Made by a program: the position numbers and the translations under genes. A DNA stretch of 50,062 nt from contig VAWK01000056.1 in NCBI GenBank assembly GCA_005885515.1, positions 13,627-63,688 on the forward strand. The letters run 5' to 3'. The notes beneath the pieces were generated by a model that was given only the letters and a program-made list of their open reading frames with translations, made no database searches and was not told where the DNA came from. Each line of letters starts with the position of its first letter. The first letter of the stretch is position 1. Origin of the DNA: Actinomycetota bacterium. GTDB lineage: Bacteria > Actinomycetota > Thermoleophilia > Solirubrobacterales > Solirubrobacteraceae. This document shows, one piece after another, positions 8,234 to 12,904 of this stretch.

Positions 8234-9067
8234 ATGGCCGGGCCTCCGGGCACGCAACCGCCGCGACGGTGGCGCCCGCGACTGCATTGGGAGCTGTTGC
8301 TGTGCGGCGTGCGCGGCCATCGCATCGTGGGCACCGACGCTGCCGCGATTCGGCCGGCGGACGCGCCGCTGGTGCGCGAGGACGCCCATGGCACGCGCTG
8401 GCACCGCTGCCTGCGCTGCGACAGCTGGCTGCCGCTGCCGCCGCCCGCGCATCCGACGCGTCCGTCTCCCCCCGAGCGCTCGGAAATCGAGCTGCCGCTT
8501 CGCGGCCGGGCGCTGCGCGACAAGATCGTGCTGCGCCTGATCGCCGTCGATCGCGGCTTTCACGTGGTGGTGCTCGGCGCGCTGGGCGCGCTCGTGCTCG
8601 TGTTCTCGGCCGACCGGGCCACGCTGCGGCAGACGTTCTACAAGGTCGTCGCCGACCTCCAGGGAGGCACCGTCGCGGGCGAGCCGCACGCCCGCCACGG
8701 GCTGCTGCACGAGCTCGACACGCTGTTCACGACCTCCTCGTCGCACCTGCACCTGCTGGCCGCGGTGCTGCTCATCTACGCCGCCGTCGAGGGCATCGAG
8801 GCGGTGGGCCTGTGGTATCAGCGCCGCTGGGCCGAGTACCTCACGTTCGTGGTCACCGCATCGCTGCTGCCATTCGAGCTCTACGAGATCGCCAACCGGA
8901 CGACCGTGTTCAAGGTCCTGGCGTTCATCGTCAACGTGGCCGTGGTCGTGTATCTGCTGCTGGCAAAGCGCCTGTTCGGCCTGCGCGGCGGCGCGGCCGC
9001 CGATGCCGCAGAGCGGGAGCGCGACTACGGCTGGGAGGCGCTCGAGCGCGCGGCGCCGGCAGCGTAG
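8234..9067 (+). CDS. DUF2127-like integral membrane protein
   Basis: The 277-residue protein begins with a soluble region holding HRCLRCDSWLPL (about 57-68), a possible single zinc knuckle. It then has three or four predicted membrane segments: FHVVVLGALGALVLVF (about 108-125), LHLLAAVLLIYAAVEG (about 170-187), YLTFVVTASLLPFELY (about 200-217) and VLAFIVNVAVVVYLLL (about 228-244). This matches my memory of the uncharacterised DUF2127 membrane family. No function is known. Start: ATG at 8234, no strong ribosome-binding site. Its last 43 bp overlap the 3' end of pdxT on the opposite strand. Confidence 0.75.
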   Translation: MAGPPGTQPPRRWRPRLHWELLLCGVRGHRIVGTDAAAIRPADAPLVREDAHGTRWHRCLRCDSWLPLPPPAHPTRPSPPERSEIELPLRGRALRDKIVLRLIAVDRGFHVVVLGALGALVLVFSADRATLRQTFYKVVADLQGGTVAGEPHARHGLLHELDTLFTTSSSHLHLLAAVLLIYAAVEGIEAVGLWYQRRWAEYLTFVVTASLLPFELYEIANRTTVFKVLAFIVNVAVVVYLLLAKRLFGLRGGAAADAAERERDYGWEALERAAPAA

Positions 9068-9636
9068 TCGCCGACATCGTTCAAGAACATGCGGTGCACG
9101 CGGTCGTCATCGCCCAGCTCGCTGTGGAACGCCACCGCGAGCATCCGGCCCTGGCGCGCGGCGACGCCATGCCCGCCCACATGCGCGAGGATCGCCACTG
9201 CGGGACCGTGCCCGGCGATCCACGGGGCGCGGATGAAGATCCCGCGCACCGGGCCATCGGACAGTCCGGCCAGCTCGATGTCGGCCTCGAAGCTCGAGAC
9301 CTGGCGGCCGAACGCGTTGCGTCGGGCCACGATGTCCATCACGCCGAGATGGTCGCGGTCGAGCACGATCAGCCCGGCGCACGATCCCAGCACGGGAAGG
9401 CCGTCAAGCGCGCGCTCGCGCAGCGGCTCGATCAAGCCCTCGCGCTCGAGGCCCAAACAGATCGTCGTGGACTCGCCGCCCGGGATCACGAGCCCCTGCA
9501 GCCCATCGAGGTCGGCCGGAACGCGCACCTCGCGCGCCTCTGCACCAAGCCGCGCCAGCACACGCTCGTGTGCCTGGAAGCCGCCCTGCAGCGCGAGCAC
9601 GCCGACCAACAGCTTCCCCGTCGGTCCGGGGGGCAC
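9025..9636 (-). CDS. pdxT: Pyridoxal 5'-phosphate synthase glutaminase subunit PdxT
   Basis: PdxT is the class I glutaminase that releases ammonia from glutamine and passes it to PdxS. The 203-residue protein shows GVLALQGGFQAHE at the N-terminus, the GGEST motif (53-57), catalytic cysteine C86 in GSCAGLI, and the His-Glu pair H171/E173 in AFHSEL. The triad is complete. It starts two bases after the pdxS stop on the same strand, so the pair is surely co-transcribed. The last 43 bp overlap the convergent DUF2127-like gene; the residues encoded there (after GDYAAGA) are poorly conserved C-terminal tail. Confidence 0.97.
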   Translation of the reverse strand: MPPGPTGKLLVGVLALQGGFQAHERVLARLGAEAREVRVPADLDGLQGLVIPGGESTTICLGLEREGLIEPLRERALDGLPVLGSCAGLIVLDRDHLGVMDIVARRNAFGRQVSSFEADIELAGLSDGPVRGIFIRAPWIAGHGPAVAILAHVGGHGVAARQGRMLAVAFHSELGDDDRVHRMFLNDVGDYAAGAARSSASQP

Positions 9637-9638
9637 GG

Positions 9639-10523
9639 CTACCAGCCGCGATGCGCCAGCAGCTGCTCGTGCTCGAGCTTGGAGCTCTCGAGACTCGTCA
9701 TCGCGCCGCCGAGGCCGCGCGAGGCCGCGGCCACGCGCTCGGGGCGCTGCCAGTGCGTCGTGGCTTCCACGATCGCGCGAGCGCGCGCCGGCGGATCCTC
9801 GGACTTGAAGATGCCAGAGCCCACGAATACGCCTTCCGCGCCCAGCGACATCATCAGCGCGGCGTCGGCGGGCGTGGCGATGCCCCCGGCGCAGAACAGC
9901 ACGACCGGCAGGCGGCCCTGACGGGCCACCTCGCGCACCAGCTCCAGGGGCGCGCCCAGCTCCTTCGCCGCCGTCGGCAGCTCCTCCTCTGAAAGCGCCT
10001 GCAGCCGGCGGATCTCGCCGACGATCAGACGCATATGCCGCACTGCCTCGACGATGTCGCCCGTGCCGGCCTCACCCTTGGAGCGGATCATCGCCGCGCC
10101 CTCGCCGATGCGCCGCAGCGCCTCTCCGAGATTCGTGGCGCCGCACACGAACGGCACCTTGAAGGCCCACTTGTCGATGTGGTGGCTCTCATCCGCCGGC
10201 GTCAGCACCTCCGACTCGTCCACGTAGTCGACCTCCAGCGCCTCCAGCACCTGGGCCTCCACGAAGTGCCCGATCCGCGCCTTGGCCATGACGGGGATGC
10301 TGACCGCCTCCTGGATGCCCACGATCATCTCGGGGTCAGACATCCGCGCCACGCCGCCGTCGCGGCGGATGTCGGCCGGCACCCGCTCCAGGGCCATCAC
10401 CGCCGCCGCGCCCGCGTCCTCGGCGACCGTCGCCTGGGCCGGCGTGACCACGTCCATGATCACCCCGCCCTTCAGCATCTCGGCCAGGCCGGACTTGACG
10501 CGGAACGTGGACTCCTCGCGCAT
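9639..10523 (-). CDS. pdxS: Pyridoxal 5'-phosphate synthase lyase subunit PdxS
   Basis: PdxS forms a dodecamer that builds PLP directly from ribose 5-phosphate, glyceraldehyde 3-phosphate and PdxT-supplied ammonia. The 294-residue sequence keeps the catalytic lysines K81 (MAKARIGH) and K149 (RSKGEAGTG), the phosphate loop [15 protein letters not shown], and the typical start [19 protein letters not shown] in pieces. The ATG at 10523 is supported by family length. It is the first gene of the pdxST pair. The 180 bp before it contain a remarkable array of palindromes (10587-10680), which may affect its expression. Confidence 0.98.
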
Positions 10524-10586
10524 AGCAGGAGTCTAGCCGCGGGTCCTGCGGGCCAAGCGGTCAATCCTCCCGACAGGATTGCTCCC

Positions 10587-10680
10587 GCCGGTACATGTAC
10601 CGGCCGGCGAGGCTGCACATGTGCAGCCTCGAAACCGGCCGCGCATGCGCGGCCGGGACCGCGCCACATGTGGCGCGGTC
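10587..10680. repeat. Array of four abutting perfect palindromes, each centred on CATG
   Basis: Four perfect inverted repeats lie end to end: 10587-10604 (18 bp), 10608-10631 (24 bp), 10635-10656 (22 bp) and 10657-10680 (24 bp). Every one is centred on CATG, but the arms differ: GCCGGTA, CGAGGCTGCA, CCGGCCGCG and GACCGCGCCA. Spacers are 3, 3 and 0 bp, and centres are 24, 26 and 23 bp apart. Each could fold in RNA or single-stranded DNA as a 7-10 bp stem closed by a self-complementary CAUG loop. The array lies 23 bp past the rpiR-like stop and 63 bp before the pdxS start. Two weaker hairpins (AATCCT/AGGATT at 10563-10580, GCAGGA/TCCTGC around 10525-10550) flank it on the pdxS side. No T-tract follows on either strand. 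Confidence 0.9.
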
Positions 10681-10703
10681 ATAAAGGTCTTAGCCGAAGA
10701 GGC

Positions 10704-11687
10704 TCACTTCAGCCGAAAGGCCTTGATGCGGTCGTCGTACTGGGCACTGTCCTGCGCGTACACGCCGTACGCGATGGCCTGGATCAGGCTGAGCAGAGCG
10801 GTGTGCGAGCGCACGTATGCGGGGCTGTTGGACGAGTAGTAGAGCTTGATCTGCGCCAGCTTCGCGACCTCCGAGAGGGTCGCATCGGTGATCGCCGCCG
10901 CGCTCGCTTTGCGGTGACGCGCGAGCTTCATCGCGCGAACCACGAGCGGGTGCGGCCGTCCTGCCGAGAGCCCGATGACGAGCGTGCGATCATCGATCCG
11001 TCCAAGCCGGCTGAGCGCCTCCTGCGACGGGCTCGCCACGACGTCGACGCGCAGGTCCAGCAGCATCAGCAGGTGGCGTAGGTAGCTGGCGAAGAACGCC
11101 ATCTGATCGGTGCCCGCGACGAGCACCTTGTCGGCCGCCGCGATCGCTTCGATCAGCGACTCGACAGAGCTGCGCGAGACCTTGCGGACGGTCTCCTCGA
11201 GGTTGAGGTGGTCGGCGGCGAGGGCGGTCTCGGACTCGTTCTGGTCGAGTGAGAACAGCGGCCCCCCCGCCTCGACCGTCCCGTTGGCGGGGCCCTGGGC
11301 GTGCACGCGACGGTATTCCTCGCGCGCCGCCGCCTGCAGCTCGGGGAATCCCTCGAAGCCGAGCGCTTGCGAGAAGCGCACGACCGTCGAGCTCGAGGTG
11401 TTGGCGCGCCGCGCAAGCTCCTCGGCGGTCTGGAAGGCGGCCTCGTCGAGATGGTCGACGATGTACTGCGCCACGTCCTTCTGCGAGCGAGAGCACTCGT
11501 CGAAGCGGGCGCGGATGTACTTGGAGAGGGTCAGGTGCTCGCTGACGCTCGCAGCCTGCCCCCCACCCGCGGCGGCGGTAGAGCCGCGAGCCTGCGCGCG
11601 CGGCTGTTCTGGCCTGACCCTGCGTGCGCCGCGTCCGCGTGCGCCTGCGGGTCGCCGGTCGGTCGTGGGGGCCGCGACGCGCTTCAT
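10704..11687 (-). CDS. MurR/RpiR-family transcriptional regulator (HTH + SIS domain)
   Basis: RpiR-type regulators bind DNA through an N-terminal helix-turn-helix and sense phosphosugars with a C-terminal SIS domain. Here the HTH_6 region runs from about LTLSKYIRARFDECSRSQ through TAEELARRANTSSSTVVRFSQALGF in pieces. The SIS domain includes KVLVAGTDQMAFFASYL and TLVIGLSAGRPHPLVV. In many members the latter segment reads GxSxSG; here it is GLSAGR, which may change ligand binding. The chosen ATG at 11687 gives 327 residues; a GTG at 11741 is possible but reaches the divergent gene. The first 50 or so residues are Arg/Pro-rich and unlike the family. The target could be the divergent acyl-CoA dehydrogenase gene or pdxST downstream. 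Confidence 0.9.
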   Translation of the reverse strand: MKRVAAPTTDRRPAGARGRGARRVRPEQPRAQARGSTAAAGGGQAASVSEHLTLSKYIRARFDECSRSQKDVAQYIVDHLDEAAFQTAEELARRANTSSSTVVRFSQALGFEGFPELQAAAREEYRRVHAQGPANGTVEAGGPLFSLDQNESETALAADHLNLEETVRKVSRSSVESLIEAIAAADKVLVAGTDQMAFFASYLRHLLMLLDLRVDVVASPSQEALSRLGRIDDRTLVIGLSAGRPHPLVVRAMKLARHRKASAAAITDATLSEVAKLAQIKLYYSSNSPAYVRSHTALLSLIQAIAYGVYAQDSAQYDDRIKAFRLK

Positions 11688-11746
11688 CGGCGGTTGTGTT
11701 CGACGTGTGCGCCTTGCACTCCTGCCCGGCGCTAGGGTCACTCCTC

Positions 11747-12904
11747 ATGCGGAGGACCCTGTTCGAGGACGTGCACGAGGACTTCCGATCGAGCTTTCGC
11801 ACCTTCCTCGAGCGCGAGGTGCTGGGCGAGGAGAACCGCTACGGCGACTGGGAGCGCGCCGGCATTGTGCCGCGCGAGGTGTTCGCCCGCGCCGGCGCGG
11901 GCGGATTTCTCGGCATGTCCATCCCCGAGCGCTATGGCGGCGCGGGGGCGGACGACTTCCGCTTCAACCTGATCATCGGCGAAGAGACCCAGCGGGCGGG
12001 CGTGAGCAGCTTCGGCCTGGGCATCACGCTGCAGAACGACATCTGCCTGCCCTACTTCCTGACCTACTGCTCAGAGCAGCAGCACGAGCGCTGGCTGCCC
12101 GGCATCGCCTCCGGCGAGCTGATCACGGCGATCGCGATGAGCGAGCCGGGGATGGGCTCGGACCTCGCCGCGATCGCCACACGCGCGCGGCGTCAGGCGG
12201 ACCACTACGTCGTCGATGGCGCCAAGACCTTCATCACCAACGGCATCAACGCCGACCTCGTGATCGTCGCGGCCAAGACCGATCCCGATGAGCGCCACCG
12301 AGGGATCAGCCTGCTCGTGGTGGAACGCGGCATGCACGGCTTCACCCGTGGGCGCAACCTCCAGAAGATCGGCCAGCACGGCCAGGACACGGCCGAGCTG
12401 TACTTCGCCGGCGTGTGCGTGCCCGCCGAGAACATGCTCGGTGAGGAGAACGAGGGCTTTCGCTACCTGGTGTCCAATCTGCCGCAGGAGCGCCTCTCGA
12501 TCGCCGCCTCGGCGGTCGCGGCCGCGGAGGCTGCGCTGTCATGGACGCTCGAGTACGTGCGCGAGCGTCGCGCGTTCGGCCAGCCGATCGGCTCCTTCCA
12601 GAGCTCGCGCTTCACGCTCGCGGAGGCGCGCACGGAACTCGACATCGCGCGCGCGTACATCGACCGCTGCGTGCAGGAGCTCGACGCAGGACAGCTGACC
12701 GCGGAGGACGCCGCGATGGCGAAGTGGTGGTGCACCGACCTGCAGGGCCGCGTCATCGATCGCTGCCTGCAGCTGCACGGCGGCTATGGATACATGCTCG
12801 AGTACCCGATCGCCCGCGCCTACGCGGATGCCCGGGTCACGCGCATCTACGGCGGCAGCAACGAGATCATGAAGGAGATCATCGGGCGCTCGCTGGGGCT
12901 CTGA
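11747..12904 (+). CDS. Acyl-CoA dehydrogenase (LCAD/isovaleryl-type active site)
   Basis: This FAD enzyme introduces a 2,3-double bond into acyl-CoAs and passes electrons to an electron-transfer flavoprotein. The 385-residue protein has the family motifs AIAMSEPGMGSDLA (about 129-141), FITNGINADLVIV (162-174) and the C-terminal LHGGYGYMLEYPIARAY. The MCAD catalytic glutamate position is glycine (RIYGGSNEIM), whereas a glutamate is present at E248 in PQERL. This is the arrangement of long-chain and isovaleryl-CoA dehydrogenases. The start ATG at 11747 was chosen by family length; the frame is open further upstream. It ends 6 bp before the convergent acetoacetyl-CoA synthetase gene and lies divergent from the rpiR-like gene, suggesting use in fatty acid or leucine catabolism. 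Confidence 0.95.
   Translation: MRRTLFEDVHEDFRSSFRTFLEREVLGEENRYGDWERAGIVPREVFARAGAGGFLGMSIPERYGGAGADDFRFNLIIGEETQRAGVSSFGLGITLQNDICLPYFLTYCSEQQHERWLPGIASGELITAIAMSEPGMGSDLAAIATRARRQADHYVVDGAKTFITNGINADLVIVAAKTDPDERHRGISLLVVERGMHGFTRGRNLQKIGQHGQDTAELYFAGVCVPAENMLGEENEGFRYLVSNLPQERLSIAASAVAAAEAALSWTLEYVRERRAFGQPIGSFQSSRFTLAEARTELDIARAYIDRCVQELDAGQLTAEDAAMAKWWCTDLQGRVIDRCLQLHGGYGYMLEYPIARAYADARVTRIYGGSNEIMKEIIGRSLGL

What the first reader, a model, noticed from the sequence alone, without database searches (positions are those of the whole stretch)
10587..10680. Four contiguous perfect palindromes sharing only a CATG centre
Seen directly: 18-, 24-, 22- and 24-bp perfect palindromes packed into 94 bp, each centred on CATG, with arms unrelated between units. 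A single operator repeated four times would conserve arm sequence; here only the fold and the centre are conserved. That is the mark of selection on hairpin structure (RNA or single-stranded DNA) with a fixed CAUG loop. Since CAUG is self-complementary, loop-loop contacts between hairpins or molecules are possible. The site separates an RpiR-type regulator from pdxS, so leader regulation of PLP synthesis, mRNA processing or a mobile hairpin element are all open. I cannot match it to a known REP, attC or riboswitch class.
Basis: seen in the sequence. Interest (0 to 1): 0.82.

Follow-up and report, generated by a model that had tools for sequence, protein, structure and literature searches.

The report
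Gene-end DNA palindrome arrays centred CATG
Behind genes in one family of bacteria sit short runs of DNA palindromes, usually 24 letters long, that share the letters CATG in the middle while their arms change freely yet nearly always stay matched, a REP-like repeat whose upkeep and purpose are not yet explained.

Summary
In detail: four perfect CATG-centred palindromes (18, 24, 22, 24 bp) fill 10587-10680 between rpiR and pdxS. They are not a pdxS device but one copy of a dispersed family of arrays. Its spacing pattern occurs in 32 of 146 genomes of the bacterial family (four genera; 31 verified as paired) and in 0 of 86 from other families of the order. Units are mostly exactly 24 bp, abut, and come three to six together. 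Taken by CATG spacing, 192 units pair at 96.9%. At this locus in six species, 33 cells changed on both sides, none on one side, with no G-U pair. Arrays recur at shared loci between species; 30 of 40 lie within 40 bp of a stop codon. They resemble REP elements but fail membership: no GTAG/CGTC tag, no fixed stem sequence, RAYT in 1 of 24 genomes. No T-run follows, and the array lies upstream of the probable pdxS -10 box, so terminator and PLP-leader readings are weaker. Best reading: a REP-like DNA-hairpin element whose apex (YRCATGYR) is recognised and whose arms are kept matched by structure, perhaps by fold-back template switching. Function and mobilising enzyme are inferred or unknown.

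The parts
10584..10680 (.). whole array of four abutting or nearly abutting palindromic units (94 bp as reported, 97 bp with the imperfect outer bases of the first unit)
10587..10604 (.). palindrome 1, GCCGGTA-CATG-TACCGGC, type C; perfect over 18 bp, 24-bp unit 10584-10607 with one C.C mismatch
10608..10631 (.). palindrome 2, perfect 24 bp, CGAGGCTGCA-CATG-TGCAGCCTCG
10635..10656 (.). palindrome 3, perfect 22 bp, CCGGCCGCG-CATG-CGCGGCCGG
10657..10680 (.). palindrome 4, perfect 24 bp, GACCGCGCCA-CATG-TGGCGCGGTC, type A, 23 bp from the rpiR stop codon
10704..11741 (-). rpiR-type regulator (HTH_6 + SIS); its 3' end is next to the array
9639..10523 (-). pdxS (SOR/SNZ), downstream gene in the same direction
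10530..10535 (-). TAGACT, probable -10 box of pdxS, 6 nt before its ATG; inferred from conservation in genus gaps (TARACT in 12 of 14, CAAACT in 2)
   Evidence: one search scores no sigma-70-type promoter here

Best explanation
A REP-like dispersed DNA-hairpin element. Shown: it is one member of a family of arrays of three to six abutting palindromes, mostly exactly 24 bp, found in one bacterial family only among the genomes tested; sequence is conserved mainly around the apex (CATG nearly fixed, consensus YRCATGYR), while the rest of each arm varies but stays paired; arrays lie mostly a few bases after stop codons and recur at the same loci in different species with fast change of arms and units. 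Inferred: the element acts as DNA, as hairpins on single-stranded (lagging-strand) DNA or as a cruciform. The CATG apex is the part a protein reads, much as group 3 REPs are read through loop and perfect stem. Arm identity is kept by structure rather than sequence, with fold-back template switching during replication a likely source of the two-sided changes. Its place behind stop codons reflects where such DNA is tolerated, or where it is useful as a boundary between transcription units. The enzyme is unknown; in most genomes it is not a RAYT of the known family.
For: Dispersed, lineage-restricted: the triple pattern occurs in 34 of 232 genomes of the order: 32 in genera g1 (19 of 24), g2 (3 of 4), g23 (1 of 17), g29 (9 of 28), two single matches elsewhere, and 0 of 86 genomes of the other families. 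Checked at one or more places per genome, 31 of the 32 have paired arms; G020's only match is weak (5, 6, 8 of 10). In 396 genomes across the phylum 15 match and by eye only the window's own is palindromic. Structure without sequence: in 55 regions taken from pattern matches, 192 units chained by RCATGY spacing, no pairing criterion, pair at 96.9% over 10 arm positions, 143 perfect; similarly spaced chains in viral contigs pair at 42.5% (149 units). At rpiR-pdxS (6 species, 180 cells) 178 are Watson-Crick, 33 changed on both sides, 0 on one, 2 unpaired; covariation 0.618 against 0.216 shuffled (these six arrays were found by their palindromes). Across ten loci (25 array pairs, not independent) 136 Watson-Crick two-sided and 7 other two-sided against 40 one-sided changes; independence predicts 43 and 240. 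Pairing falls from 85.5% at position 12 to 11.8% at 13 (units with 8 or more of 10 pairs). No wobble excess: GT 6 and AC 7 of 59 non-pairs in 1920. Gene ends: 30 of 40 arrays within 40 bp of a stop; random placement 14.5, maximum 27 in 2000 draws, as published for REPs (PMC3733652, abstract and one section). Loop and perfect-stem recognition is known for group 3 TnpAREP (PMC8266576, passages); two-sided change by template switching is published (PMC8794818, abstract and start of introduction).
Against: No mobilising enzyme was found; only RAYT (Y1_Tnp) was sought, present in 1 of 24 genomes. No target-site duplication or clean empty site was shown; at the two loci examined, empty relatives were compared only by eye. 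The same loci recur in different species, which fits inheritance or function better than free movement. The window's own genome (92% complete) shows only this array, so active spread there is not seen. Units in G003 are partly decayed (15 units, 84.7% paired), so pairing is not automatic and passive template switching alone does not explain it. In several locus pairs the arms differ less than the flanks (O4, O5, O10, most of O6). Absence of G-U also fits RNA use on both strands.
Confidence: 0.55

Rival explanations
1. Transcription-boundary element: clusters of RNA hairpins behind stop codons that end transcripts or protect their 3' ends, without a U-tract. Selection keeps the stems; CAUG is a favoured loop.
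For: Median distance to the stop codon 12.5 bp against 89 bp to start codons; 30 of 40 arrays within 40 bp. Convergent gaps are mildly enriched, 12 of 36 against 60 of 338, p 0.04. In G022 and G004 the array directly follows the sigma-gene stop where several relatives show a terminator-like hairpin (by eye). Hairpin clusters near stops, more frequent at high GC, are proposed as terminators (PMC8355165, abstract and one section). The window's array folds very stably.
Against: TTTT within 12 nt follows 0 of 37 sense-side array ends and no terminator-like site is scored at 9600-11800. In G014 and G002 the array lies beyond an apparent terminator (by eye). A terminator needs neither a palindromic apex nor YRCATGYR. 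No G-U excess on the sense strand (small numbers). At the two loci examined most genus members lack the array: 6 of 20 rpiR loci fetched have it and 4 of 24 sigma loci.
Confidence: 0.25
2. Protein operator arrays: a dimeric DNA-binding protein reads YRCATGYR and arrays at about 24-bp spacing load several dimers.
For: The apex carries most of the information: CATG 2 bits per position, then 1.05, 1.05, 1.02, 0.84, then 0.58 or less. Spacing is regular (75 of 111 at 24 bp).
Against: A dimer does not require the outer arm positions to pair while free in sequence, yet they do. Arrays sit behind unrelated genes, mostly nearer to stops than to starts.
Confidence: 0.08
3. RNA hairpins whose self-complementary CAUG (or RCAUGY) loops kiss, holding transcripts or hairpins together.
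For: The loop is self-complementary in 148 of 152 four-base-loop hairpins near arrays (145 CATG, 2 TATA, 1 GCGC), which a plain hairpin loop would not need.
Against: No sense-strand G-U signal; arrays occur in both polarities relative to transcription (by eye); the window's genome has a single array. A palindromic apex is equally expected if the DNA duplex or both strands are read.
Confidence: 0.05
4. Leader regulation of PLP synthesis in front of pdxS.
For: The array lies between rpiR and pdxS in six species and, by coordinates, behind rpiR in a seventh (G005).
Against: Arrays follow acyl-CoA dehydrogenase, UvrD, ribosomal S7, FtsH, RecR, a sigma factor and others; 14 of 20 genus loci fetched lack it here; it lies upstream of the probable pdxS -10 box; no relevant Rfam match.
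Confidence: 0.02

Closest known systems
REP elements / BIMEs (GTAG- and CGTC-tagged repetitive extragenic palindromes), especially group 3 REPs with perfect stems read through their loop
   Same: 20-40 bp palindromes, extragenic, clustered, dispersed, close behind stop codons; loop plus perfect stem is a known recognition mode (PMC3733652, PMC8266576)
   Different: No stem sequence conserved across species, no GTAG/CGTC tag, nearly fixed self-complementary CATG apex, mostly exact 24-bp units three or more together, few arrays per genome, no RAYT in 23 of 24 genomes
Hairpin-cluster (U-less) intrinsic terminators
   Same: Clustered stable hairpins within tens of bases of stop codons (PMC8355165)
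   Different: Fixed palindromic apex, regular unit length, patchy presence between species, sometimes beyond an apparent terminator
Stems kept perfect by template switching (quasipalindrome correction)
   Same: Two-sided changes in one step (PMC8794818)
   Different: There the stems belong to RNA genes; here the outer arms carry little sequence constraint and the apex is fixed
HIP1 octamer of cyanobacteria (recalled, no call)
   Same: A short palindromic core in high copy in one clade
   Different: As I recall it, HIP1 has no paired variable arms and no 24-bp arrays

Membership tests
REP/BIME with RAYT (REPtron) | short palindrome, extragenic, clustered, near gene 3' ends | tested here: met
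REP/BIME with RAYT (REPtron) | GTAG or CGTC motif at the foot of the hairpin | tested here: not met
   C-type array ends favour AAC (18 of 62); the base counts show no GTAG/CGTC consensus at array ends. Only array ends, not each unit's foot, were tabulated
REP/BIME with RAYT (REPtron) | conserved stem sequence within the family | tested here: not met
   outer arm positions 0.58 bit or less; arms differ at 26% of bases on average at shared loci
REP/BIME with RAYT (REPtron) | RAYT (Y1_Tnp, PF01797) in the genome | tested here: not met
   1 of 24 genomes of the genus
REP/BIME with RAYT (REPtron) | high copy number, usually over 100 per genome (abstract of PMC2817692 in the listing) | tested here: not met
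   0-31 overlapping pattern matches per genus genome, 10 arrays in G014, 5 in G004, 1 in the window's genome
Intrinsic terminator | GC-rich hairpin after the stop codon | tested here: met
Intrinsic terminator | T-run after the hairpin | tested here: not met
   TTTT within 12 nt at 0 of 37 sense-side array ends; none scored in the window stretch
Intrinsic terminator | transcripts end there | not testable with these tools
   no RNA data
Riboswitch or other Rfam family | match to a covariance model | tested here: not met
   window 9000-12500: one chance-level mir-598 match elsewhere (E 0.23, below its gathering score)
Structured element in general | two-sided change in orthologues beyond chance | tested here: met

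The most novel reading that the evidence does not exclude
A new class of bacterial hairpin element that carries little heritable sequence except its apex: units are recognised and copied or repaired as structures by an unknown, non-RAYT single-strand enzyme that reads the CATG loop, and each arm is rewritten from the other (fold-back copying), so stems change on average as fast as the DNA around them while hardly ever losing pairing.
Probability: 0.25. Interest if true: 0.82.

Novelty: new variant of a known kind. Interest (0 to 1): 0.62.

Why it matters
Stems that change on both sides at once are usually taken as proof of RNA function. Here is a natural series, many loci in several related genomes, in which two-sided change far outnumbers one-sided change, wobble pairs are not favoured and the apex is nearly fixed. 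That makes it possible to ask whether DNA-level fold-back correction can imitate covariation, and what reads the apex. It would also add a REP-like family in a group of high-GC bacteria that mostly lacks the known mobilising enzyme.

Tried and rejected
Rfam search of 9000-12500: nothing relevant. DNA similarity to plasmids: two short hits at E 9e-3, treated as chance. A GTAC-centred analogue, suggested by the reversed control pattern in G174 and in large genomes of genus g91: direct tandem repeats by eye, not palindromes (three g91 genomes looked at). Viral carriers: of 53 viral contigs with three GCATGC at the same spacing, 1 has a two-unit paired run, by eye a direct A/T-rich repeat; the pattern used misses ACATGT cores. 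RAYT as mobiliser. Regulon: genes before arrays look unrelated (20 of the 37 genes scanned, one without a Pfam match). Exchange of units between loci of one genome is only part of the story: nearest neighbours share the genome in 19.7% against 8.9% in label shuffles, and the window's genome shows no second array. Literature: searches found no paper; one search found one REP paper; some searches gave REP, template-switch and terminator papers, seen as listings except the four named ones. None of what I saw describes such arrays.

Limits. Regions were taken because pattern matches lie there, and I passed over some matches that looked unpaired (for instance G007:C48 and, those outside the 15 arrays), so density says nothing about genome averages. 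One search used a two-unit pattern; the 15 arrays fetched from it have three or more units or run off a contig end (L229, L239). Seven isolated CATG palindromes with 8 of 10 pairs and none better were seen in the 55 regions. Profiles and mismatch counts use units pre-selected for pairing (8 or 7 of 10). One search's 216 units include loci picked by their palindromes, so I quote one search's 192. Gene calls come from my own script; three arrays fell inside predicted genes, one at an edge. One search aligns only units with more than 9 of 20 equal arm letters, its pairs share genomes, one pair had no flank alignment, and of the rpiR-pdxS group only the five pairs with the window enter the total. 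Of the ten shared loci one (O10) matches on one flank only, because a contig ends, and in O8 and O9 the arrays lie some hundred bases apart within the matched region. In one search one inner unit was left out of each four-unit row (window, G012, G019). Which genome loci L122-L135 belong to was read from output order.

Full report
What is in the window. Four perfect palindromes, all centred CATG, occupy 10587-10680. The gap between the rpiR stop (10704) and the pdxS start (10523), both genes on the minus strand, is 180 bp and holds in addition a 7-bp hairpin at 10562-10581. Chance does not give this: ten simulated windows gave no palindrome over 20 bp.

It is a family. Three RCATGY cores at 22-26 bp centre spacing were sought in 232 genomes of the order. 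The pattern occurs in 34, all in the window's family: 19 of 24 in its genus, 3 of 4, 1 of 17 and 9 of 28 in three others, and two single matches in further genera, one unpaired (L136) and one not listed. None of 86 genomes in the other three families has it. Checked at one or more places each, 31 of the 32 genomes have paired arms; the single match of G020 is weak. In 396 genomes spread over the phylum 15 match, and by eye only the window's own has palindromic arms. Overlapping matches per genome range from 0 to 31 in the genus. The window's genome shows just this one: of 17 two-unit matches 3 are the array, the other 14 look unpaired, and the reversed control gives 16.

Anatomy. In 40 array regions (524 kb) 142 perfect palindromes of 16 bp or more are centred CATG, 107 of them exactly 24 bp; no other centre has more than 14. 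In units with at least 8 of 10 pairs, pairing is 95-100% at positions 3-11, 85.5% at 12 and 11.8% at 13; information is 2 bits per base in CATG, about 1 bit for the next three positions, 0.84, then 0.58 or less. Consensus apex YRCATGYR. Centre spacing is 24 bp in 75 of 111 cases, 25 in 20, 23 in 11. Without a pairing criterion, 192 units in 55 regions pair at 96.9% and 143 are perfect over ten positions; similarly spaced chains in viral contigs pair at 42.5%. Units of G003 pair at 84.7% (15 units) and look partly decayed. Four-base loops near arrays are CATG 145, CACG 3, TATA 2, GCGC 1, CGGC 1. Units fall into types by inner bases; the order A-B-C is frequent, and C-type array ends are followed by AAC in 18 of 62 cases.

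Evolution. Flank comparison shows arrays at the same place in different species at ten loci, nine by both flanks, one of them shared with another genus. At rpiR-pdxS 6 of the 20 genus loci fetched carry an array, all six with type A next to rpiR and C next to pdxS; a seventh, in G005, is inferred from coordinates. The distance from the stop codon varies from 0 to about 105 bp. At the sigma-factor locus 4 of 24 genus genomes have one, 19 have none in the 230 bp shown and one contig ends there. In six rpiR-pdxS orthologues, which were found by their palindromes, 98.9% of 180 cells pair, 21 of 30 pairs show a two-sided change, none a one-sided change, and sliding the partner by one to three columns destroys it. 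Over ten loci arms differ on average at 26% of bases where flanks are 76-91% identical, with a wide spread (3-42%): 136 Watson-Crick and 7 other two-sided changes, 40 one-sided; independence predicts 43 and 240. On average, then, arms change about as fast as their surroundings or faster while keeping their pairing, which compensatory selection through mismatched intermediates explains poorly. Replacement of whole units is part of it.

Context. By my own gene calls, 40 arrays lie in codirectional (19), convergent (12) and divergent (5) gaps, three inside predicted genes, one at an edge. Median distance to a stop codon is 12.5 bp, to a start codon 89 bp; 30 of 40 are within 40 bp of a stop, where random placement gives 14.5. 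Divergent gaps are not significantly avoided (p 0.15). Genes in front look unrelated. No TTTT follows within 12 nt (0 of 37 sense-side ends), and on the sense strand G-U is not favoured over A-C (2 against 4 in 740 cells; small numbers).

What it most likely is. The location matches REP elements, many of which sit within 20 bp of gene ends (PMC3733652, abstract and one section). Group 3 REPs have perfect stems and are read through specific loop bases (PMC8266576, passages). The present family works like that but does not qualify: tag, stem conservation, copy number and RAYT are not met. I therefore call it REP-like. Two-sided change by template switching is published for RNA stems (PMC8794818, abstract and start of introduction) and fits the lack of wobble pairs and the divergence of an array that is now alone in its genome, as in the window; decay in G003 says that something else, recognition or function, must also act. 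Hairpin-cluster terminators (PMC8355165, abstract and one section) remain the main rival.

The pdxS leader idea. A TARACT box lies about 6-10 nt before the pdxS start in 12 of 14 fully shown genus gaps, and CAAACT stands there in the other two (read by eye, start placed by alignment to the window's protein); in the window the distance is 6 nt. The only non-genus gap shown in full (L027) has neither, and the sigma-70-type scan scores no promoter here. The array ends about 48 nt upstream of the box. In G013 and G019 only two bases separate them. A leader role is therefore unlikely; an effect on the promoter is possible.

Noticed in passing
L011 (gap after rpiR), L015, L179 3638-3661, L182 4891-4914: A different, operator-like palindrome, about TGTATNACCATGGTNATACA, centred CCATGG, seen singly or repeated in several genus members.
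   Followed up: no
L171, L172, L173, L174 (genome G010): A separate repeated palindrome GATTCGTTCCGCGCGGAACGAATC (with variants) within a repeated stretch of about 100 bp.
   Followed up: no
window 10530-10535 and orthologous gaps: A TARACT box about 6-10 nt before the pdxS start in most genus members suggests a near-leaderless pdxS mRNA.
   Followed up: partly
L250 (G012), after the sigma-factor gene: TGTCATGCGGCCCGGCCAACATG looks by eye like the remnant of a lost array.
   Followed up: no
L333, L334, L336 (genome G003): Arrays with partly broken pairing, apparently decaying, in one species.
   Followed up: partly
G174:C3 459735-460532: A long 24-bp direct tandem repeat with GTAC at fixed spacing; not palindromic.
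   Followed up: partly
window 10562-10581: A 7-bp hairpin (CAATCCT/AGGATTG) between the array and pdxS; not checked in relatives.
   Followed up: no
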